From JBBIVP01 sp037439705 [NCBI: bacterium] (GTDB lineage: Bacteria; JBBIVP01), in NCBI GenBank assembly GCA_037439705.1, contig JBBIVP010000008.1, forward strand, positions 1 through 24,579: DNA of 24,579 nt, read 5' to 3'. Position numbers and translations under genes: made by a program. Shown piece after piece: positions 673 through 24,313 of the stretch. The first letter of the stretch is position 1. Every line of letters starts with the position of its first letter. The notes beneath the pieces were generated by a model. That model saw only the letters and a program-made list of their open reading frames with translations, had not been told where the DNA came from and ran no database searches.

Positions 673-2622
673 TTAAAGGTTTATTTCATCCTTTGAGAAA
701 TGCATTCTCTGTTCTGCAGCCTGAAGGATCATTTCAAGCATTCTTGAATATGAGATTCCGGCAATTTTTGCCATTTTTGCTAAGTGCCCGTCCCAGCACC
801 AGCCAGGATTGGGGTTGACCTCAAGAAGTCTCGGTTCTCCTTTTGAATTCAATCTCCAGTCAAAACGAGCGTAATCCCTGCATTCAAGTCTTTCAAAGAG
901 TTTCAAGGAACATTCTATTATAATTTTTTCAGTTTCCTCTGGAAGAACCGCCGGGATGGAATCAACCTTTCCATATGGCGAATCAGGTAGCCATTTTGCT
1001 TCATAACCACATATCTTTGGAAGTTCCGGAGGAAGAGAATAATAATCTTCTTCTATTATTGGAAGAATTGTATAGGAATCGGGTGGATTACCTATTATTC
1101 CCACGCTCAAATCCTTTCCTGTCAAAAATTCTTCAACGAGAATTGGCTTTTCATATCCAAACTTTTCTCTTATTTCAGAGACCGCGTTGAGGAGTTCTTC
1201 ATGATTCTTTGCTACACTCCTCTGCGTTATTCCAAAACTTGAATCCCCAAAGTTGGGTTTCACAATTACGGGAAATTCAAAGGGAATTTGAAATGTCGTA
1301 TCTTCAGGTTTTATCACCACAGCCCTTGGCACAGGGATTCCCATTTCCCTCGCAATTCCTCTGATAAGGGATTTGTCATAACAATGAGCAAGGCAATGGG
1401 GTTTTGCACCGGTATAAGGTATTTTCAAAACTCCAAGGAGTGCAGGAATGTGAAGTTCCTTTCTCGGGTTGTTAAGATAGCCCTCGTCGCAGAGATTTAA
1501 TATGAAATCAACCTTACCCTTTTCTTTGAGTTTAAGGAGTTCCTGGATGAGGGTATCGTGATTTGTAAGATAGGTGAATCTGTAGTAACCTTTCTGCTCT
1601 ATATCCCTTAATGCTTCTTTTAACTGGTCAATTGTGTAAAGGTCGTCGTCGTCAAAGATTCCTTTCGGCTTCAACGGGTCTGGTTTTGAAGGGTCTCCCA
1701 GAAGAACAACAACTTCTTTTGCTACCTTCTTCTTTATTTTTACAGGCGTCCAGTTTTTTCTTGCAATGGCAGTAACAATTATTCTTCTCTTCATCATGCC
1801 GAGGTCCTGATTCCTTTTTGAGTCTGGGAAGAGTGTACCGTGAAATTGAATCTCGGCAAATCCAACCGTTTGAAGCAGTCCTTTCAATTTTTCTTTTGTG
1901 TAAAGTCTCTCAGCATAAAACTGGTCTACAATTACTCCCTTTTCCACATGGGATATGATTTCCCTTGAAATAAGCCTTTCTCCATCAATGGAGAGTGAGC
2001 GTTCTCTACACACAAAATGTTTTTTGTCTATCCATTCCCACGATCTTGGCTGAAAGTGTTCTTTCAAATACTCACCATCAGAAACATCTATGAGAAGTTT
2101 TCCCCATGGTTTTAAAACCTTTAAAACTTCTTTCAACACTTTTAGGTCTTCGTTAAGGCTATCAAAATATCCAAAACTGTTGCCAAGAATAAGCACAGCA
2201 TCAAATGTGTCGGGTGGATATGGAAGTTTCCTGGCATCTCCCTCGCGAAACCTTATGTTTAATCCATCCTTTTTTGCATTTATTTTTGCTTTCTGGATAA
2301 GATAGTGGGAACGGTCAAGGCCATCAATGTTCTGTATTTCTCTTCTTGCAAGTTCTAAAGAATGCCTTCCATGTCCACAGCAGAGGTCCAGGATTCTGTC
2401 TTCAGGAGAAATTTTTAGAATTGAAAGTATTGTATCTACTTCCCTCGCAGTGATTTCTCTGTCTTCCACCACATCGCCATCTGTTTTGAGATAAAAAGAG
2501 TTAAAGAGCCTTCTCCACCAATCTCTTGGAACATGTTCTTCTAAGTGTTGAACAGGTCCAAGTGTTCTTACTCCATTTGGTAGTTTTTTTCTTTTTAAAG
2601 ACTCTTCACTCACTACTTTCAT
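673..2622 (-). CDS. SAM methyltransferase fused to a D-Ala-D-Ala-ligase-like ATP-grasp enzyme
   Basis: A 649-residue protein with two catalytic halves. Residues about 45-290 are a class I SAM-dependent methyltransferase: motif I is DRILDLCCGHGRH (75-87), followed by acidic and GDARKLP segments and the post-motif stretch KPWGKLLIDVSDG. Residues about 305-640 are an ATP-grasp ligase of the D-alanine-D-alanine ligase type. Visible there are FPVIVKPNFGDSSFGI (ATP-binding Lys and glycine/serine loop), ILVEEFLTGKDLSVGI, and the metal-binding LEVNPNPGW near the C-terminus. The usual Ddl N-terminal GG-S-EH loop is absent, so cell-wall D-Ala-D-Ala synthesis is unlikely. More plausible is ATP-driven peptide/amide bond formation on a small molecule or peptide that is also methylated (inference). 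An AAGGGGG-like ribosome site lies nine bases before the ATG. A strong promoter sits about 95 bases upstream. The gene stands alone, so the substrate cannot be read from its neighbours. Confidence 0.8.
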   Translation of the reverse strand: MKVVSEESLKRKKLPNGVRTLGPVQHLEEHVPRDWWRRLFNSFYLKTDGDVVEDREITAREVDTILSILKISPEDRILDLCCGHGRHSLELARREIQNIDGLDRSHYLIQKAKINAKKDGLNIRFREGDARKLPYPPDTFDAVLILGNSFGYFDSLNEDLKVLKEVLKVLKPWGKLLIDVSDGEYLKEHFQPRSWEWIDKKHFVCRERSLSIDGERLISREIISHVEKGVIVDQFYAERLYTKEKLKGLLQTVGFAEIQFHGTLFPDSKRNQDLGMMKRRIIVTAIARKNWTPVKIKKKVAKEVVVLLGDPSKPDPLKPKGIFDDDDLYTIDQLKEALRDIEQKGYYRFTYLTNHDTLIQELLKLKEKGKVDFILNLCDEGYLNNPRKELHIPALLGVLKIPYTGAKPHCLAHCYDKSLIRGIAREMGIPVPRAVVIKPEDTTFQIPFEFPVIVKPNFGDSSFGITQRSVAKNHEELLNAVSEIREKFGYEKPILVEEFLTGKDLSVGIIGNPPDSYTILPIIEEDYYSLPPELPKICGYEAKWLPDSPYGKVDSIPAVLPEETEKIIIECSLKLFERLECRDYARFDWRLNSKGEPRLLEVNPNPGWCWDGHLAKMAKIAGISYSRMLEMILQAAEQRMHFSKDEINL

Positions 2623-9204: not shown

Positions 9205-10542
9205 ATGGAGAAATACCGAGTAATAGTAGTTGGAGCGGGTCCTTCTGGAATCTTAGCTGTAAAGAAACTTAAAGAAATGGGAATAAATGATATTGCGTTA
9301 TTTGAAGCAGGAAAGGACATAAATGAAAGGGGAAAGGATGAGGTTCTCAAGGGATGGGGAGGTGCAGGTGCTTTCAGTGACGGAAAGCTCATTCTTTCTC
9401 CAGAAGCAGGAGGAAATCTAACTGAGTACATTTCATATAATAAATTGAAGGAAATGATTGAGGATGTTGATAAAACGCTGGTAAATTATGGAGCTCCATT
9501 GGAAACCTACGGTGGAAATCCTCAAAAAAATGAATGGCTTAAAAGAAAAGCAACTATAGCAAGAATGATATACATTCCTATGGTCCTCAAACATCTTGGC
9601 ACTGAACTGGCAAGGGAAATTCTCTGGAAAATAAGGGAAGACGCCAATAACTGGTGCGAGTTCTATCCAAATTCACCTGTGGAGAGTTTGCTTGTTGAGA
9701 ACGGTGAAGTTAAAGGAGTTGTTGTAAACGGAAAAAAAGTTTACGGAAGGTATGTGATTCTTGCTCCTGGAAGGGTTGGAAGTGAGTGGCTCATGAAAGA
9801 ATGTTTGAAGCACGGAATTGAATCCATCCCCTCTCCTGTGGACATAGGCGTAAGGGTGGAAGTGCCAGCGGTTATTATGGAAGAAATAACAGATATTGTT
9901 TATGAAGCAAAACTTATTTATTTTACTCCTACATTTAATGACAAAGTTAGAACATTCTGTATGAATCCCCACGGAGAGGTTGTTCTTGAGAAAACAGAAG
10001 GATTGATAACAGTGAACGGACACAGTTTTAAGAACAGAAAAACAGAGCTCACAAACTTTGCCCTTCTCGCCTCAACAACCTTTACCCATCCATTCAAAGA
10101 CCCGATTTCCTACGGAAAATATATCGCATCTCTTGCAAACATCCTTGGAGGTACTGTGATTGTGCAGAGATATGGAGACCTTCTTGCAGGAAGACGTTCA
10201 AATCCTGAAAGGATAAAGAAAAATCTGTTTCAGCCATCCCTCGAATCAGCCACACCGGGTGATTTGAGTTTCGTTCTTCCATACAGGATCCTCCACGACA
10301 TAAAAGAAACAATTTCAGCAATGGAAGAGATAATTCCCGGCATCTCTTCACCAAATACCCTCCTTTACGGAGTTGAGGTAAAATTCTATTCAAATAGAAT
10401 AAAACTGAAAGAAACGATGGAAACAGATATAAAAAACCTCTATGTGGTAGGAGATGGTGCCGGTGTTTCAAGAGGGCTTGTTCAGGCTGCTATCAGTGGA
10501 ATGCTTGCAGGAGAGGATATAGCAAGAAAGGAAAAATGCTGA
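9205..10542 (+). CDS. FAD-dependent dehydrogenase, COG2509-type
   Basis: A 445-residue soluble flavoprotein with an N-terminal Rossmann FAD site VIVVGAGPSGILAVKKL (residues 6-22) and an acidic ribose-binding end (FEAG). The family-typical GWGGAGAFSDGKL (about 50-62) and a late FAD-contact stretch, NLYVVGDGAGVSRGLVQAA (about 412-430), are also present. This pattern matches the uncharacterised dehydrogenases grouped as COG2509, distant relatives of HI0933/GidA-like flavoproteins; the substrate is unknown. The start ATG is supported by immediate entry into the Rossmann strand, although the only ribosome-site-like AGAGG is rather far upstream. It is followed by a small gene overlapping it by seven bases, so the two are probably functionally linked. 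No signal peptide, so cytoplasmic. Confidence 0.8.
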   Translation: MEKYRVIVVGAGPSGILAVKKLKEMGINDIALFEAGKDINERGKDEVLKGWGGAGAFSDGKLILSPEAGGNLTEYISYNKLKEMIEDVDKTLVNYGAPLETYGGNPQKNEWLKRKATIARMIYIPMVLKHLGTELAREILWKIREDANNWCEFYPNSPVESLLVENGEVKGVVVNGKKVYGRYVILAPGRVGSEWLMKECLKHGIESIPSPVDIGVRVEVPAVIMEEITDIVYEAKLIYFTPTFNDKVRTFCMNPHGEVVLEKTEGLITVNGHSFKNRKTELTNFALLASTTFTHPFKDPISYGKYIASLANILGGTVIVQRYGDLLAGRRSNPERIKKNLFQPSLESATPGDLSFVLPYRILHDIKETISAMEEIIPGISSPNTLLYGVEVKFYSNRIKLKETMETDIKNLYVVGDGAGVSRGLVQAAISGMLAGEDIARKEKC

Positions 10543-10862
10543 AGGACTACACACACATAGATATCGGAAAAGAAATAAGGTTCATTTCCGGATTCTATGA
10601 GGTGGAAGAGGAAAAAAGAATAAAATTTAAAAATGATGAGATTCTTGTTATAATTGGCCATGCAATAGTGGATTCTGCCTGCTGCGGAATTGGAGCGTGC
10701 AGATACGCTCTTGTTCCCGGAAAAATAAAAAGATGGAAATACAGGAAGGACGAAAACGGAAATGTCCGAACAGAAGTTGAAACCATTTCTGATGAGGAAA
10801 AGAAGGAGTTTGAAAAATACATTAAGGAAAAAGAAGTCCTCAACCAGGTTGTATTCTGGTAG
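10536..10862 (+). CDS. Small Cys-rich protein of unknown function
   Basis: I do not recognise a named family. The 108-residue product has a compact core DSACCGIGACRYALVPG (about residues 47-63) with three cysteines in a C-C-x4-C arrangement followed by Arg-Tyr. The start is ordinary, and the C-terminal half is charged, helical and rich in Lys/Glu (about 65-100). The cysteine cluster could bind a metal or Fe-S cluster or act in redox chemistry, but this is inference. Its ATG overlaps the last codons of the FAD dehydrogenase gene by seven bases, with AAAGGAA just ahead as ribosome site. Coupled translation suggests it serves that flavoprotein, for instance as an electron or substrate partner. 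It converges with truA one base later, with no terminator seen. Confidence 0.65.
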   Translation: MLKDYTHIDIGKEIRFISGFYEVEEEKRIKFKNDEILVIIGHAIVDSACCGIGACRYALVPGKIKRWKYRKDENGNVRTEVETISDEEKKEFEKYIKEKEVLNQVVFW

Positions 10863-12776
<1,914 letters not shown>

Positions 12777-17856: not shown

Positions 17857-18918
17857 CTATCCAAGCCTTTTTCTGAAAAGCCCTATTGAAAGAAGAATAA
17901 TAAGAGTGCCTGTTGTAAAAAGGGCGATTGCATCTGGTATGAGGTATTTGAATTCAAGACCTTTTAAAAATATACTCCTTGTTGCCCGGAGAAAGTAATA
18001 GAGGGGATTAATTTTTGCAATAATCTGAAAAAAAACTGGCATGTTTTCAACAGGAAATACAAATCCGGAAAGAATTATAACTGGGAGCATTATAATGAAT
18101 ATAGTCATCATAGCCTGCTGTTCAGTTCTTGATATGATGGAGAAGAAGATTCCTCCTCCAAGGGTATTCAATATGTAAAGGAGGGAGAAAAAGAAAAATG
18201 TGAGAAGTGAACCGCGAAATGGAACATCAAGAACAAATACAGCAACAAGAAATATGACGAGCGTATCAATGAATCCGATTATAACATAAGGAAGTAGTTT
18301 TCCGATAATAAAAGCACTTTCTGAAAGCGGGGTTGTGACTATTGATTCAATTGTTCCCCTTTCCTTTTCCCTTACAATGGATAGTGCGGTAAGAACCATT
18401 GTCATCACCAGGAGTATGGCACCGAAAATGCCTGTTACAAAAAAGTTTTTGCTCTTGAGTTCTTCGTTATAAAGGGTGTGTATTGATAGCCTTGGAGTAA
18501 AAGAAATGGTTGAGGGAGAAAGAAATTCCTCAAAGATAACTCGGGTTATATATGATGCAGTTATTATTGCATTGTTTGAGTTTGTTCCATCAATAATTAT
18601 CTCAGGCGGATTTTTGAAAACCACAATTGCTTCCACCACTCCTTTTCTCATAAGTTCAATTCCCTCATCATAGGATAAAACCTCGCCCTTGAACTGGAAG
18701 TATGGAGAAGAATTCATTATTCCGCCAAATTTGAGGCTCTTTTCCCTGTCTCCTCCTTTGAGCACCACCACAGGAATTTTCTTGACATCAAGGGTTGCAG
18801 CAAGTCCAAGAAGGATTATCTGAAACACGGGTGCAAAGAAAAGTATCGGAAATACCCTTCTATTCCTGCGAAGGTGAATAAACTCCTTCAGAAACACATT
18901 TATAACGCTCTTTATCAT
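17857..18918 (-). CDS. ABC-2 type exporter permease (second copy)
   Basis: A 353-residue inner-membrane permease of the YbhS/YbhR (DrrB-like, ABC2_membrane_3) family. The frame extends to 18996, but the ATG at 18918 is chosen: GAAGGGA lies just ahead, it forms an ATGA overlap with the upstream permease stop, and it then matches that paralogue's length and N-terminus (FLKEFIHLRRNRR versus AWKEFIHILRDKR). One N-terminal helix (about 20-40) precedes a periplasmic domain (about 45-160). Five C-terminal helices follow, with the cytoplasmic loop VREKERGTIESIVTTPL (about 183-199) and SGFVFPVENMP. It is the last gene of the exporter operon and probably pairs with the preceding permease as a heterodimer. 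The cargo is unknown. Confidence 0.87.
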   Translation of the reverse strand: MIKSVINVFLKEFIHLRRNRRVFPILFFAPVFQIILLGLAATLDVKKIPVVVLKGGDREKSLKFGGIMNSSPYFQFKGEVLSYDEGIELMRKGVVEAIVVFKNPPEIIIDGTNSNNAIITASYITRVIFEEFLSPSTISFTPRLSIHTLYNEELKSKNFFVTGIFGAILLVMTMVLTALSIVREKERGTIESIVTTPLSESAFIIGKLLPYVIIGFIDTLVIFLVAVFVLDVPFRGSLLTFFFFSLLYILNTLGGGIFFSIISRTEQQAMMTIFIIMLPVIILSGFVFPVENMPVFFQIIAKINPLYYFLRATRSIFLKGLEFKYLIPDAIALFTTGTLIILLSIGLFRKRLG

Positions 18919-19982
18919 AATTCCCTTCCCAGCCTTATTATGCTTGCGGTAAAAAAGAATAAAAAGAAAATGATGAGAACAAAAACCTCCTTCCACAAAA
19001 ATATGAGTGACGTGCCTTTGAGTATTATGAACCTTATAAGTTTTATGTAATACTTTGTCGGTATCAACCTGCTGTAAAGTTCTTTCGCACCGGGCATGCT
19101 TGTGGTAGGGAAAATGAAGTCTGAAAGAATGAGAGACGGAAGAACAGTAATTATGAAGGTGATAAGCCAGGCAACCATTGTGCTTGCTGTAAGAGTGGAA
19201 ACAAAAATTCCTATGGAGATGCCGGTTGTGATAAAAAGAAAGGTTGAGAATGTTAAAGAGATGAAACTGCCTTCACACCTTACATCAAACAGTAGATAGG
19301 CGAACAGAAGTCCTATCAGGAAATCACACAGCCCTATTAGAATGTATGGAAGAATCTTGCCAGCTATTATTTCTCCGGGGGTGATAGGTGAAACCCTGAG
19401 GGATTCCATTGTCCCTTTTTCCTTCTCCCTTACCACCGCCTGTGCGGTCATTGCAACCGCAAGAACGAAGAGAAATATACCTATGAGACCTGGAACGAAA
19501 AATTTACGAGAACTCAATTCCGGATTGTAAAGGAATTTGAGGCGAGGTCTTCTATTTTCCCTTTCAAATTCGTAAAACATCTGAAACAGATATCCCTGCA
19601 CAATTGTTGCAGAATTACTGTCAGAGCCATCAACGAGAAGGTCAAGGGGAACAGATAGATTTCTCGCAATGGAAGCGTATGTATCTTCTTTTATATTTAT
19701 GAGAATTGTAATTTTTCCTCTCCTTATGAGTTCCTCTCCTTCTTTCAGATTGAGTACGGGAATTAACTCAAAGTAGGTAGAACCCTCTATTTTCCTTTTT
19801 ATATTTTCGCCCACTATTCTATCCTCCTCTATCAAACCGATTTTGATGCGTTTTATGTCAAGAGTAATAGCATATCCAAGAAAGGATACTGTGAATGCAG
19901 GAAACACGAGCGTAAGGATGAACGCCCTTTTATCCCTCAAAATGTGGATGAACTCCTTCCATGCTACTGCAAGAAATCTCAT
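18915..19982 (-). CDS. ABC-2 type exporter permease (first copy)
   Basis: A 355-residue paralogue of the next gene with the same plan: an N-terminal helix (about 20-40), an extracytoplasmic domain (about 45-165), then five or six helices. The loop VREKEKGTMESLRVSPI, the SDFIFPTTSMP segment and the C-terminal hydrophobic tail are all present. The ATG overlaps the ATPase stop by four bases (ATGA). In the family (for example YbhF-YbhS-YbhR with YbhG), two permeases, an ATPase and a membrane-fusion protein form a drug, lipid or ion efflux system reaching toward the outer membrane. An outer-membrane channel such as TolC is not in this window. Confidence 0.87.
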   Translation of the reverse strand: MRFLAVAWKEFIHILRDKRAFILTLVFPAFTVSFLGYAITLDIKRIKIGLIEEDRIVGENIKRKIEGSTYFELIPVLNLKEGEELIRRGKITILINIKEDTYASIARNLSVPLDLLVDGSDSNSATIVQGYLFQMFYEFERENRRPRLKFLYNPELSSRKFFVPGLIGIFLFVLAVAMTAQAVVREKEKGTMESLRVSPITPGEIIAGKILPYILIGLCDFLIGLLFAYLLFDVRCEGSFISLTFSTFLFITTGISIGIFVSTLTASTMVAWLITFIITVLPSLILSDFIFPTTSMPGAKELYSRLIPTKYYIKLIRFIILKGTSLIFLWKEVFVLIIFFLFFFTASIIRLGREL

Positions 19983-20872
19983 TTTATTTCCGAAAGAAAT
20001 GCAAACACATCCTCTATACTGGGTATTACTTCAAAAATTTCCTTTCCTACAGTCCTTTCAACAGCGCTTTTTATTCTTTCGTCTTCTACAATTATGTGTA
20101 TCTCCTCTCCGTATTGATTTACATCTCTCACGCCATCCATTTCCATAAGAATTTTCTTGAGTGATGGAGAAAGTTTTTTCTTTATAGCATAAACCTTTGC
20201 AGAAATTCCCCTTGTTTTAATCTCCTCAGGTGTTCCAAGTGCAACAAGTTTTCCCTTCCACAGAAATCCTATTCTGTCACACCTCTCCGCTTCTTCCATG
20301 TAATGGGTGGTTATAAACAGGGTCTTTCCACTTGCCCTCTCTTCATACAATATGTCCCAGAAAAGCCTTCTTGAAACAGGGTCAACCCCTTGAGTTGGCT
20401 CATCAAGAAAAAGAAGAGGAGGTTCATGAACGAGGGCGTTGGCAAGAGCAAGTCTCTGCCTCCAACCTCCTGAAAGGTTCTCTGCCTTCGTGTTTCTGTA
20501 CTCTTTGAGATTCAGTCTTTCTATTATCTTTTCTGCCATAGTCTCTGCATCTTTCCAGTTATTTATGTAAAGCCTTGAATAGAACATCAGGTTTTCCATA
20601 ACAGTAAGGTCATCATAAAGCCCGAATTTCTGTGACATATATCCAATTCTTTTTTTAACTTCCTCAGGGTTTTTAACAACATGAATTCCAGCCACCTCTG
20701 CCCTGCCAGCGGTAGGCTTGAGTATTCCGCAAAGCATCCTTATAGTTGTTGACTTCCCTGCCCCATTTGGTCCCAAAAGACCGAAAATTTCGCCTTCTTT
20801 TACTTCAAGTGTAAGAGCATCTACAGCAACTATGCGCCCAAATTCCTTTCTCAGATTTTCAGTTTTTATCAT
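19979..20872 (-). CDS. ABC exporter ATPase (YbhF/DrrA-like)
   Basis: A 297-residue nucleotide-binding subunit powering the adjacent permeases. Walker A is GPNGAGKST (34-42). The Q-loop is in GYMSQKFGLYDDLT. The signature is LSGGWRQRLALA, the LSGGW variant typical of YbhF-type exporters. Walker B is LLFLDEPTQGVDP and the switch histidine is in TTHYMEEAERC. Only one ATPase module is present, unlike the double-module YbhF of enteric bacteria. A C-terminal accessory domain of about 75 residues, as in the DrrA group, ends the chain. It overlaps its upstream and downstream genes by ATGA. All catalytic residues are present. Confidence 0.93.
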   Translation of the reverse strand: MIKTENLRKEFGRIVAVDALTLEVKEGEIFGLLGPNGAGKSTTIRMLCGILKPTAGRAEVAGIHVVKNPEEVKKRIGYMSQKFGLYDDLTVMENLMFYSRLYINNWKDAETMAEKIIERLNLKEYRNTKAENLSGGWRQRLALANALVHEPPLLFLDEPTQGVDPVSRRLFWDILYEERASGKTLFITTHYMEEAERCDRIGFLWKGKLVALGTPEEIKTRGISAKVYAIKKKLSPSLKKILMEMDGVRDVNQYGEEIHIIVEDERIKSAVERTVGKEIFEVIPSIEDVFAFLSEIK

Positions 20873-21702
20873 TTCGGGAGACTAACCTTCACAAATTCTC
20901 CAGTGTTAAATCCTGACTCATCAGGAATTTTTACCCTGAACTCGTAGTGAAGGATATCCCTTTCACTGTCCGAGACAAAATACCTCGGCGTAAATTCAGG
21001 TTCCGAAGAAATAAAGTAAATTTTTCCTTTCAAAAAATGCTTTCCCTTTTTGACATCCACTTCTCTGTCAACCTTCACAACATCAAGTGCACTTTCTGAT
21101 GCATAGCACCTAAGATATTTTTCACCCTTCAATTCCACCTTTACGAGAATTAAACTTGGAATTGCAACTTCTCCTTCATCAACAGTAATTTCAACAACCC
21201 TCCCATCTTTAGGACTTGTAATTTTCCCATCCTTTATCTTTTTTTCAAGGAGTTCCTTTCTTGTGATTCCTGCGGAAATTTTTTTATTCAGACTTCTGAT
21301 TTCCTCCTCCGTAGTTTTTTCCTTAAGTTCAAGTTCCTCAACATTCATCCTTGATGCGCCACCCGCCTTCTCAAGTTCTCTTGACCTGTCAAGATTTTTC
21401 CTTATGTAGGAAAGGAGAGCCTTTAATTTTTCAATCTGATGAAGAGACGATTCTATTTCGTCTCCAATAGACCTCAACTCTATTTCCATATCTTCCGTAT
21501 CAAGCTCAATTATAACCTCTCCGTTTTTTACATTACTCCCCTCTTCAACAGCAATCCTTTTAACCTTTGCAGGATAAGAAGCTGATAACTCTACATATTT
21601 TCCCTCAACCCTGCATGTGAAAGAAAGTTCATCTCTTTTATTACATCTGATTATACATACAACTAAAGCGAGAATTAAAAAGAAAAATACCCTTCTTTGC
21701 AT
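20869..21702 (-). CDS. HlyD/YbhG-like periplasmic membrane-fusion protein of the ABC exporter
   Basis: A 277-residue adaptor, first gene of the exporter operon. An N-terminal hydrophobic segment (about 4-19) is a signal anchor; the CIIRC stretch does not make a good lipobox because Arg precedes the second Cys. The biotinyl-lipoyl half-motif SYPAKVKRIAVEEGSNVKNG (43-62) is followed by a helical hairpin (about 75-165, Glu/Lys rich coiled coil). The second lipoyl half, ITSPKDGRVVEITVDEGEV, and a beta-barrel tail follow. This is the usual order for YbhG-type fusion proteins, with a somewhat short hairpin. The gene has no Shine-Dalgarno site, but a promoter is placed for a leaderless start. The stop overlaps the ATPase start. 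Confidence 0.88.
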   Translation of the reverse strand: MQRRVFFFLILALVVCIIRCNKRDELSFTCRVEGKYVELSASYPAKVKRIAVEEGSNVKNGEVIIELDTEDMEIELRSIGDEIESSLHQIEKLKALLSYIRKNLDRSRELEKAGGASRMNVEELELKEKTTEEEIRSLNKKISAGITRKELLEKKIKDGKITSPKDGRVVEITVDEGEVAIPSLILVKVELKGEKYLRCYASESALDVVKVDREVDVKKGKHFLKGKIYFISSEPEFTPRYFVSDSERDILHYEFRVKIPDESGFNTGEFVKVSLPK

Positions 21703-21786: not shown

Positions 21787-22521
21787 TTATTTCTTTATGT
21801 GTTTTTTTATCTTTTCAATAAGTTCAAGGGCTTTTATTCTGTCCCAGGTGAACCAGTCTGCATAATAGGTGGGATTTGTAATTGAAAGAACCATTTCTGC
21901 GGTTTTGAGTGCCTCTTCAAATCTTTTCTGTTTGTAAAGGTTTAAGGCGAGGTCGTAATAGGAAAGGGTATAATTTGGGTCAACCTCAATAGCCTTTCTC
22001 AGAATCTCTTCTGACCTTTTTAAATCTCCTCCAAGAAAAGAGGGAAGTTCGCAGTAAAAAGCTCCGAGCCCATCAAGGATCATAGCATCATCGGGCTTGA
22101 GTTCGTTAGCCCTTTTTATGTGTCTTTTCAGGTCGGAAAGGGTTTTGAGGCTGAATAAAGTTCCCTTGAGTTGCTGAAGCCTTGCAAGGTTTGCAAAATA
22201 CCAGAAATGTCCCATCGCATATTTTTCGTCTACATTTATTGCCTTCTCAGCCCACTTCATTCCTTCTTCATAAACTTTTTCCCTCTCTTTTTCATTCTTT
22301 GGAACAAGGTCCCCGTAGGTGAGAAGCGCTCTTGAAATCATTATCATCGGATATGGGTCAGAAGGATTTTTCTCAAGGGCTTTTTTGTAGAGTTCTATGC
22401 TTTTCTCAAGTTTTGGAAGGTCCTCGTGATAAGAAAAGAATACATCGTCTGCATTTTTGATTATACTGGCGTATTCGCTTTCTAAACCAATGAGAAGGAT
22501 TACAAATAATACTTCTTTCAC
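21787..22521 (-). CDS. TPR protein, TatT-like (TRAP-associated family)
   Basis: A 244-residue protein with a short hydrophobic N-terminus (about 3-13, possible signal peptide) and four or five tetratricopeptide-like helical pairs. Examples are the segment around SIELYKKALEKNPSDPY and the last one around RFEEALKTAEMVL. The stretch LPSFLGGDLKRSEEILRKAI (about 156-175) resembles the LP-LGG motif of TatT, the periplasmic TPR partner of TRAP transporters. No TRAP transporter genes are visible, so a different scaffold role is possible. The start is GTG at 22521, overlapping a TGA at 22518-22520 that closes the reading frame of the FadL-type gene. This coupling strongly suggests the barrel gene once ran to that point. 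No strong ribosome site is present. Confidence 0.75.
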   Translation of the reverse strand: MKEVLFVILLIGLESEYASIIKNADDVFFSYHEDLPKLEKSIELYKKALEKNPSDPYPMIMISRALLTYGDLVPKNEKEREKVYEEGMKWAEKAINVDEKYAMGHFWYFANLARLQQLKGTLFSLKTLSDLKRHIKRANELKPDDAMILDGLGAFYCELPSFLGGDLKRSEEILRKAIEVDPNYTLSYYDLALNLYKQKRFEEALKTAEMVLSITNPTYYADWFTWDRIKALELIEKIKKHIKK

Positions 22522-22706
22522 AATCTAAACCCTATAGCGATATCACCCTTTAATCCCTCAGCTGAATAACTTCCGTTTGCAGGAGGGGAAATTTGAGAAT
22601 TTTTTACATTCCTCCCAAATGGGATGTAGAAATTGAGATTTCCGCTCACGAACAGATTTTTTGAGATTTCAAAAAGAGCACCAGTGAGCAGTTCAAGTTT
22701 GTCAAA
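22518..22706 (-). pseudogene. Severed C-terminal segment of the FadL-type barrel gene
   Basis: Directly after the TAA at 22709-22707 the same frame stays open for 62 sense codons to TGA at 22520-22518. The encoded stretch begins FDKLELLTGALFEISKNLF and ends KGDIAIGFRL, with alternating hydrophobic residues typical of the last strands of an outer-membrane barrel and a plausible C-terminal assembly signal. Its TGA overlaps the GTG of the next gene in the same GTGA style used at the start of the barrel gene. There is no start codon or ribosome site of its own at its head. It reads as the original end of the barrel, cut off by one nonsense codon, or made only by readthrough. Confidence 0.75.
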
Positions 22707-23801
22707 TTAAAGGTTCATAACGGAAAGATGTGTATCCGAAATTACGCTCTGGTCGTATGCTCCTCCAACAAGAAATGTCCATCTTCTCAAAGGTTTATAC
22801 CTTGCATCAATTTTTATAGAAATGGCATCTTTAAAGTTAACAGTATAATCCCTGTTTTCTATCAAACCGATATCCACCTCTCTTCCTGTTTCTCTATCCA
22901 TTCCGTTTTTTATTCTTATTTTCATTTTTTCGTAATAACTCCAGTCAAACCACTGAAAGGCGAGATTAAACTCAAGTCTTTTCATAGGTCTTACCTTTGC
23001 CCCAAAACTCAAAAACATTGGATAGTCTATCTCTACATCCGCCTCTCCAGTTATGTCGTGGGATTTGAATGAGAAATCAAAAAGTTCTTTGGTATACTCT
23101 GTTGCATAAAACCTGTACTTCCCGCTGTGAACCACATCCATGGGACTGGTATATGAAATTCCTATATCAAGGAACTCAAGAGGTCTTATAAATAGTCCCA
23201 GAGAGTAGCCCAGCGCAATTCCGTTCATATCCTTAAATTCATACTTTCCTTCATTTGATGGCACTTCATCGGGTCCCATAAGAAGGGTGCTTCCTGTTGC
23301 ATAAAACCTTCCAAATCCTATATTTAGAGAAGAACCGATGGATAAAAAATCTGTTATTCTCACAGAGATAGAGGGTGAGAGGTTCATAAGGTAATTTTCT
23401 CCATCAACTCCATGAAATTTCTGCGGTCCTTCTTCTGGATAATGGGCGGACGCTCCAAATGGAATATAAAAGGCAATCCCTCCTGATAAAGATTTTATAA
23501 ATCCATTTATTTCTCGTGTATAACTGATGCCCACGAAAGGGAGATAGTCGGTTCCTGTGTATCTCACGGTTTCGTAGGAATCTCCACTCCTTTTGTATCT
23601 CGTCCTGAAATAAAAGACTGAAAGGTCAAGGAATCCGTTGATTCCACGAGAAAAGGAGATAGCTGATGGATTCCAGTAGATGGAAGCAAGGTTTATGTCG
23701 GCGGGTGAAGAAAAATTGCCACCAGTATCAGGAATGGTATAGCCATTAGCCATTACCTCAGCAGGAATAATAAGGAGCAATAGAAAGACAATTTTCTTCA
23801 C
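22707..23801 (-). CDS. FadL/OMPP1-type outer-membrane transport protein, ended early by in-frame TAA
   Basis: The reading frame to the first stop encodes 364 residues. A signal peptide ends near AEVMA (about residue 18), and the mature chain begins NGYTIPDTGG, like the FadL hatch, followed by ASIYWNPSAISF, a family hallmark. Repeated beta strands rich in Tyr/Phe run through GLFIRPLEFLDIGISYTSPM and FNLAFQWFDWSYY to VGGAYDQSVISD. FadL-type proteins let hydrophobic compounds such as long-chain acids or aromatics across the outer membrane. The TAA at 22709-22707 removes the last 62 codons, so the protein as read lacks its closing strands and should not assemble. Start is GTG (GTGA overlap with nitroreductase), with GGAGGAG upstream. 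It may be a recent pseudogene, a sequencing error or a readthrough case. Confidence 0.8.
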   Translation of the reverse strand: MKKIVFLLLLIIPAEVMANGYTIPDTGGNFSSPADINLASIYWNPSAISFSRGINGFLDLSVFYFRTRYKRSGDSYETVRYTGTDYLPFVGISYTREINGFIKSLSGGIAFYIPFGASAHYPEEGPQKFHGVDGENYLMNLSPSISVRITDFLSIGSSLNIGFGRFYATGSTLLMGPDEVPSNEGKYEFKDMNGIALGYSLGLFIRPLEFLDIGISYTSPMDVVHSGKYRFYATEYTKELFDFSFKSHDITGEADVEIDYPMFLSFGAKVRPMKRLEFNLAFQWFDWSYYEKMKIRIKNGMDRETGREVDIGLIENRDYTVNFKDAISIKIDARYKPLRRWTFLVGGAYDQSVISDTHLSVMNL

Positions 23802-24313
23802 CTTATCTCCTCCACCACATTTTTCAATGGAATTCTGGAAGGAGTTTCAGGATATTCTGCTGGATAACCAACTGGAATGATGGCAACCGGTCTTAAATGG
23901 GCTGGAAGGGAAAGGGCATCAGCAACCTTCCTTTCGTCAAATGCTCCCACCCAGCATGTCCCAAGTCCCTTTGAAACTGCATAAAGCATCATGTTTTGAA
24001 TTGCTGCAGCAGTGGATTGAAGGCAGTAAAGGTTCCTTCCTCTCTCTCCGTATGGAGATGTTCTTTTTAAGTCTGCACAAACAACAATGCAGACAGGAGC
24101 TTCAGCAATGAATTCCTGTCTCAATGCATAAAGTGCAATCTTCTCTTTCAGGTTTTCATTTTTTATCAGGTAAAATTTCCATGGCTGAAGGTTTCCTTCG
24201 GATGGAGCAAGGATAGCGCATTCAAGCATTTCCTTTATGATTCCATCGTCAATCTCTTTTTTCAGAAACATCCTTATGCTTCTCCTCTTTTTTATTGCTG
24301 AAACCACATCCAT
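23798..24313 (-). CDS. Nitroreductase-family FMN oxidoreductase
   Basis: A 171-residue FMN enzyme of the nitroreductase superfamily, which uses NAD(P)H to reduce nitro compounds, quinones, enones or related acceptors. The N-terminus VVSAIKKRRSIRMFLKKEI has the RRS-R FMN phosphate-binding pattern. APSEGNLQPWKFYLI (about 36-50) is the second FMN contact. The C-terminal GLGTCWVGAFDERKVADAL and IIPVGYPAEYPETPSRIPL close the family signature. Length is at the short end of the family. First gene of the operon with the FadL-type barrel and the TPR protein; its TGA overlaps the GTG of the barrel gene. The start ATG has no ribosome site, but a -10 lies seven bases upstream. Substrate is unknown; an imported hydrophobic compound is possible (inference). 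Confidence 0.9.
   Translation of the reverse strand: MDVVSAIKKRRSIRMFLKKEIDDGIIKEMLECAILAPSEGNLQPWKFYLIKNENLKEKIALYALRQEFIAEAPVCIVVCADLKRTSPYGERGRNLYCLQSTAAAIQNMMLYAVSKGLGTCWVGAFDERKVADALSLPAHLRPVAIIPVGYPAEYPETPSRIPLKNVVEEIR

What the first reader, a model, noticed from the sequence alone, without database searches (positions are those of the whole stretch)
22518..22709. Single in-frame TAA splits a FadL-type barrel gene just before its closing strands
Seen directly: after the TAA the same frame continues for 62 sense codons with barrel-like sequence to a TGA that overlaps the GTG of the next gene. The same GTGA coupling joins the barrel gene to the gene before it, so the operon layout was built around the longer protein. 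A barrel without its last strands should fail assembly. Possible reasons are a fresh nonsense mutation, a consensus error, a phase-variable or population-level switch, or programmed UAA readthrough. Other genes in the window use TAA as an ordinary stop (for example nuoN), which argues against a recoded genome.
Basis: partly seen in the sequence, partly recalled or inferred. Interest (0 to 1): 0.72.

Follow-up and report, generated by a model that had tools for sequence, protein, structure and literature searches.

The report
FadL-like gene cut by one stop
A bacterial gene for an outer-membrane transport barrel is cut short by a single stop codon just before its last strands, which is most likely an ordinary recent loss-of-function mutation or a sequence error rather than a new mechanism.

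Summary
A minus-strand FadL/Toluene_X gene (GTG at 23801) stops at TAA 22709-22707 after 364 codons; the frame then runs 62 sense codons to TGA 22520-22518, overlapping the next gene's GTG. The tail is the family's C-terminus: 15.1 bits against a homologue profile, none of 2000 shuffles. All 35 aligned homologues run 57-92 residues past the stop column, the first D of a PDxDR motif (27 D, 3 S, 3 T, 1 A, 1 V). Register is kept, so one in-frame substitution suffices. TAA ends 9 of the other 19 genes listed. Readthrough is unlikely (UAA followed by U; PMC11126739; folding after the stop unremarkable), and no tandem repeat marks a phase switch. Best reading: a fresh, probably polymorphic nonsense allele; main rival: a consensus error. 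Reads would decide. No genome is held, and two collection scans with this protein found no close relative. Ordinary; interest low.

The parts
22707..23801 (-). FadL/Toluene_X-type outer-membrane barrel ORF, 364 codons plus TAA, GTG start
   Evidence: Pfam PF03349 E 3.1e-27, profile 27-349 of 421
22707..22709 (-). premature in-frame TAA, at the column of the first D of the conserved PDxDR motif
   Evidence: 27 D, 3 S, 3 T, 1 A, 1 V in 35 homologues; none ends there
22521..22706 (-). 62 in-frame sense codons after the TAA: the family's C-terminal part, ending ...GDIAIGFRL
   Evidence: C-terminal profile 15.1 bits, none of 2000 shuffles; end resembles that of L082
22518..22520 (-). original TGA stop, overlapping the GTG of the TPR gene as GTGA (22518-22521)
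21787..22521 (-). downstream TPR-repeat protein gene, 244 aa, GTG start
23798..24313 (-). upstream nitroreductase-family gene; its TGA overlaps the barrel GTG as GTGA (23798-23801)
23807..23813 (-). GGAGGAG, Shine-Dalgarno-like, before the barrel GTG (the TPR start has no comparable purine run)
   Evidence: read by eye from the sequence; not scored by a tool

Best explanation
A normal FadL/Toluene_X-type outer-membrane barrel gene, 427 codons long in its uninterrupted frame and coupled by GTGA overlaps to its neighbours, has suffered a single in-frame nonsense substitution in the sequenced organism or strain. Ribosomes stop at codon 365. The product lacks everything after the PDxDR motif, by alignment the last three strands including the closing strand, so it should fail assembly and be degraded. 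Coupled translation of the TPR gene at GTGA should also fall. The lack of any second lesion in the 62-codon tail suggests the event is recent, quite possibly a strain-level polymorphism. Shown: the frame, the stop, the homologous tail, and that the aligned relatives do not end there. Inferred: that the stop is real in the cells, the number of strands lost, assembly failure, reduced coupling and recency.
For: Frame and stop. Family: Pfam PF03349. Tail homology: (15.1 bits, none of 2000 shuffles). 35 of 35 aligned homologues run 57-92 residues past the column. The profile alignment is ungapped across the stop, so it is a substitution and not a frameshift. Of the listed homologous genome matches, 6 of 13 and 24 of 44 span residue 365 (counted), and none of these 13 and 44 rows reports a stop inside; two places are in both lists. 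TAA is the stop of 9 of the other 19 genes listed. PMC7918605 (abstract, part 1 of 2 of Results and of Discussion read; [quoted passage not shown]
Against: No reads, no second assembly and no close relative are at hand: the genome is not held, and scans of genome contigs and viral contigs with this protein gave none. The best homologues are 29% and 25% identical. Recency therefore rests only on an undamaged tail. The Pfam model gains only 0.5 bit by crossing the stop, and the tail alone hits no Pfam family. PMC7918605 itself argues that many in-frame stops are not pseudogenes (dN/dS below 1).
Confidence: 0.62

Rival explanations
1. The TAA is a consensus or assembly error (base-call error or collapsed strain mixture) and the gene is intact in the organism.
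For: Body and tail both look like a normal gene in one frame, with no second lesion seen. A single substitution is all that is needed. I noticed no other broken gene in the window, but did not test this systematically. PMC7918605 expects a substantial fraction of raw in-frame stops to be artefacts.
Against: Well-covered short-read consensus seldom has isolated substitution errors (general knowledge); coverage and read type are unknown.
Confidence: 0.28
2. The site is a population-level or phase-variable switch of the surface barrel.
For: Surface proteins are frequent targets of phase variation (general knowledge); a polymorphic site cannot be excluded without reads. The longest inverted repeat found in 22400-23000 (17 nt, 82% complementary, arms 22538-22554 and 22706-22722) has one arm over the stop.
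Against: No tandem repeat overlaps 22518-22709. The inverted repeats are short and imperfect, and no chance expectation was computed for them. No recombinase family appeared among the 20 ORFs scanned with Pfam. A reversible switch by point substitution is not a mechanism known to me.
Confidence: 0.04
3. Programmed or regulated UAA readthrough makes a minor full-length barrel.
For: The tail is intact and in frame. A hairpin of 8 pairs starts 15 nt after the stop (z -1.87, 6 of 200 shuffles as stable). PMC7918605 argues that readthrough of in-frame stops is frequent, and PMC11126739 did detect readthrough peptides for 6 TAA genes of E. coli (0.23%).
Against: None of 35 homologues ends at this column. 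6 of 41 windows along the operon, 5 of them not overlapping the tested stretch, fold at least as well by z-score. In E. coli reporters UAA is the codon least read through, and a following T raised termination accuracy in the proteome data (PMC11126739, passages); here the next base is T.
Confidence: 0.04
4. The 364-aa protein is a functional shorter barrel and the tail is a remnant.
For: The ORF body is intact.
Against: None of 35 homologues ends near this point; the shortest continues 57 residues. The closing strand that usually carries the BAM beta-signal would be missing, though internal signals exist (PMC10945584, passages).
Confidence: 0.02

Closest known systems
FadL / TodX / TbuX outer-membrane transporters (Pfam PF03349 Toluene_X)
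   Same: Pfam score 95.6 against a cut-off of 29.7; the profile of the window protein and 26 relatives finds E. coli FadL 1t16 at 7.4e-61 and 3dwo at 8.9e-64.
   Different: The ORF stops at the point that aligns with D363 of chain 1t16, so the last strands are not encoded before the stop; NPS in place of the consensus NPA at residues 44-46.
In-frame nonsense alleles of bacterial genes (PMC7918605)
   Same: One in-frame stop in an otherwise intact gene with a homologous tail.
   Different: No orthologue from a close relative is at hand, so neither persistence nor dN/dS could be measured.
Stop-codon readthrough genes of bacteria (PMC11126739)
   Same: An intact extension follows the stop.
   Different: The stop is UAA followed by U, and distant homologues do not share it.

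Membership tests
FadL / Toluene_X (PF03349) | Pfam gathering score passed | tested here: met
   95.6 bits against 29.7
FadL / Toluene_X (PF03349) | conserved N-terminal NP motif (NPA; name recalled) | tested here: met
   N44 and P45 invariant in alignment A1 of 27 rows; the window has NPS where the consensus has NPA
FadL / Toluene_X (PF03349) | complete C-terminal strands in the translated ORF | tested here: not met
   stop at codon 365; the matching sequence lies after it
FadL / Toluene_X (PF03349) | 14-strand barrel with N-terminal hatch (recalled) | tested here: inconclusive
   single-sequence fold failed, mean pLDDT 29.2
FadL / Toluene_X (PF03349) | signal peptide | not tested
   the N-terminus looks like one; no predictor was run
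programmed stop-codon readthrough | stop conserved among homologues with a conserved tail | tested here: not met
   0 of 35 homologues end at the column; all are distant, so a younger conserved stop is not excluded
programmed stop-codon readthrough | leaky stop and context (UGA, or stimulating downstream structure) | tested here: not met
   UAA followed by U; folding after the stop is matched by 6 of 41 operon windows
phase-variable gene | simple repeat or invertible element at the switch | tested here: not met
   no tandem array at the site; only short imperfect inverted repeats
stop-codon reassignment (TAA sense) | TAA not used as a terminator elsewhere | tested here: not met
   TAA ends 9 of the other 19 genes listed
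pseudogene / nonsense allele | stop is present in the organism's DNA and not an error | not testable with these tools
   no reads and no second assembly

The most novel reading that the evidence does not exclude
The UAA is regularly read through (or suppressed) so that a small, tuned amount of the full barrel reaches the outer membrane and translation couples on to the TPR gene.
Probability: 0.03. Interest if true: 0.6.

Novelty: already known. Interest (0 to 1): 0.12.

Why it matters
It shows that a striking break seen in raw sequence is an ordinary kind of event. If real in the population, it marks loss of one outer-membrane uptake route, and probably lowered expression of the coupled TPR gene, in a poorly sampled bacterial lineage. 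It also warns annotators not to file the 364-aa ORF as a natural short barrel.

Tried and rejected
Closer relatives: the read-through barrel in genome contigs gave 18 pattern matches and no relative, and in viral contigs 3 pattern matches and no relative. A second genome-contig scan with the CoA-activase protein placed the window only roughly: 156 relatives, 80 loci kept, best identity 46%. Obg against the genomes of 34 of those 80 loci gave its two best E-values in G004 (58% identity) and G031 (62%). The class of these two genomes holds only those two among the genomes held. Conserved operon: the TPR and HlyD proteins were sought in 13 genomes; in G031 the barrel and HlyD matches lie about 1.7 Mb apart and the TPR protein had no match at E 1e-8, so the operon is not shared there. 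Structure: AlphaFold2 on the single read-through sequence failed (mean pLDDT 29.2); not used, and no fold search was made. I did not hand in an alignment with the loci fetched by the genome search, since the structure tool's list of permitted sources does not name them. phmmer against PDB sequences found nothing up to E 1; the profile did. Pfam on the tail alone found nothing up to E 10. RNA structure after the stop looked mildly strong but not against 41 overlapping operon windows. TAA reassignment was rejected, and a frameshift was rejected because the register is kept.

Rows dropped before counts: one search gave loci for 10 of its 13 matches and for the best 30 of its 44, two of them the same places, so the homologue set comes from 38 loci, L081-L118. 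In one search, 38 ORFs from 37 of those loci matched (L087 gave none at E 1e-3). 37 ORFs passed E < 1e-8; two of 600 aa or more (L098, L105) were left out of the 35-row alignment, and their ends, shown, also look like barrel C-termini. One open L081 fragment (E 1.1e-4) was left out. The rows are stop-to-stop frames, so they cannot hold an internal stop; what is tested is whether any ends at the column. Several rows are closely alike in the part shown (for example L108, L109, L111), so the 35 are not independent. Alignment A1 used 26 of the 35 and gives the same column picture (20 D, 2 S, 2 T, 1 A, 1 V). The homologues were found with the read-through query, tail included, so the tail test is not wholly independent, though the window was left out of the profile.

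Full report
What is there. On the minus strand, genes for a nitroreductase-family protein (24313-23798), a FadL/Toluene_X-type barrel (23801-22707), a TPR protein (22521-21787), an HlyD-type protein (21702-20869), an ABC ATPase (20872-19979) and two ABC-2 membrane proteins follow one another. The barrel ORF is 364 codons long, starts with GTG and ends with TAA at 22709-22707. The same frame continues for 62 sense codons to a TGA at 22520-22518 that overlaps the GTG of the TPR gene; the nitroreductase/barrel junction has the same GTGA form.

Is the tail real coding sequence? Length alone is weak evidence: P is about 0.014 for 62 open codons at the tail's composition, and one other gene of 19 (TruA) has a longer open extension, antisense to another ORF. 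Codon usage favours the tail's own frame (log-odds 0.158) over the five others, all negative; overlapping body segments of the same length score 0.06 to 0.33. The decisive test is homology. A C-terminal profile made from 35 homologues without the window scores the tail at 15.1 bits; 1897 of 2000 shuffles gave a score, the best 10.3, so none reached the tail; four of the five other frames scored -0.6 or less and one was not reported. By eye the tail's end, SQISPPANGSYSAEGLKGDIAIGFRL, resembles that of L082, SQVYPPANGTYKSSASLINLNIELRFL. Against this, the Pfam model gains only 0.5 bit by crossing the stop (96.1 against 95.6), ends at residue 381, and the tail alone hits no Pfam family up to E 10.

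What stands at the stop in relatives? Homologues were found in 10 of 34 genomes (E <= 1e-5) and in 43 of 297 genomes of one phylum (E <= 1e-10); the best two places are in both lists. No row of the 13 and 44 listed matches reports a stop inside; 6 and 24 of them span residue 365 (counted). In an alignment of 35 homologues the TAA column is the first D of the PDxDR motif: 27 D, 3 S, 3 T, 1 A, 1 V, and no row ends there; a second alignment with 26 of them agrees (20 D, 2 S, 2 T, 1 A, 1 V). All 35 continue 57-92 residues beyond the column, where the window has 62, and 27 of 35 end in F, the window's frame in L. The profile alignment is ungapped across the stop, so a substitution and not an indel made it. 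The homologues are distant (29% at best), so they show the ancestral form but cannot date the event.

What is lost? A profile of alignment A1 (window plus 26 of the 35 homologues) finds E. coli FadL 1t16 (E 7.4e-61) and 3dwo (8.9e-64). Along that alignment the stop falls at D363 of chain 1t16, just before a stretch that reads as three strands (RFWLSAGTTYAF, ASVDVGVSYMHGQSVKI and the C-terminal strand). That three strands of a 14-strand barrel are lost is inference from the alignment and from recalled knowledge of FadL; the single-sequence structure prediction failed (pLDDT 29.2). The closing strand normally carries the beta-signal for the BAM machinery, although internal signals exist (PMC10945584, passages seen), so failure of assembly is likely and not proven. 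Because the barrel start has a GGAGGAG motif and the TPR start has no comparable one (read by eye), ribosomes ending at the TAA, 185 bases before the TPR start, probably also reinitiate less at the TPR gene; this is inference.

Which cause? TAA ends 9 of the other 19 genes listed, so it is a stop here. Readthrough is unlikely: UAA is the codon least read through in E. coli reporters, and a following T raised accuracy in the proteome data, though the same paper detected readthrough for 6 TAA genes (PMC11126739, passages seen); the next base here is T. A hairpin after the stop (z -1.87, 6 of 200 shuffles) is matched by 6 of 41 windows along the operon, one of which overlaps the tested stretch. 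No tandem repeat lies at the site; inverted repeats nearby are short and imperfect, though the longest (17 nt, 82%) has one arm over the stop, so a phase-variation device is not seen. What remains is a real nonsense substitution or a wrong base in the consensus. PMC7918605 (abstract, part 1 of 2 of Results and of Discussion read; [quoted passage not shown] I put 0.62 on a real, recent, probably polymorphic loss-of-function allele and 0.28 on an error; these odds are my judgement. Reads would decide; the window's genome is not held.

Verdict. Nothing here points to a new system.

Noticed in passing
window 673-2622 (-): A 649-aa protein joins a methyltransferase domain (residues about 72-182) to a D-Ala-D-Ala ligase C-terminal domain (426-634) in one ORF, an uncommon-looking fusion.
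   Followed up: no
window 17857-21702 (-): HlyD-type protein, ABC ATPase and two ABC-2 membrane proteins (exporter-like set) lie directly behind the barrel and TPR genes; in G031 the barrel and HlyD relatives lie about 1.7 Mb apart, so the grouping is not shared there.
   Followed up: partly
window 22814-22933 (-): This stretch of the barrel gene's RNA has the lowest folding z-score of 41 operon windows (-4.2, 60 shuffles).
   Followed up: no
window 10863-11717 (-): After the TruA TAA the frame stays open for 126 codons, antisense to the + strand ORF 10536-10862.
   Followed up: partly
window 1-24579: The window belongs to a poorly sampled lineage: the best Obg matches by E-value, 58% and 62% identical, are in two genomes that alone make up their class among those held.
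   Followed up: partly
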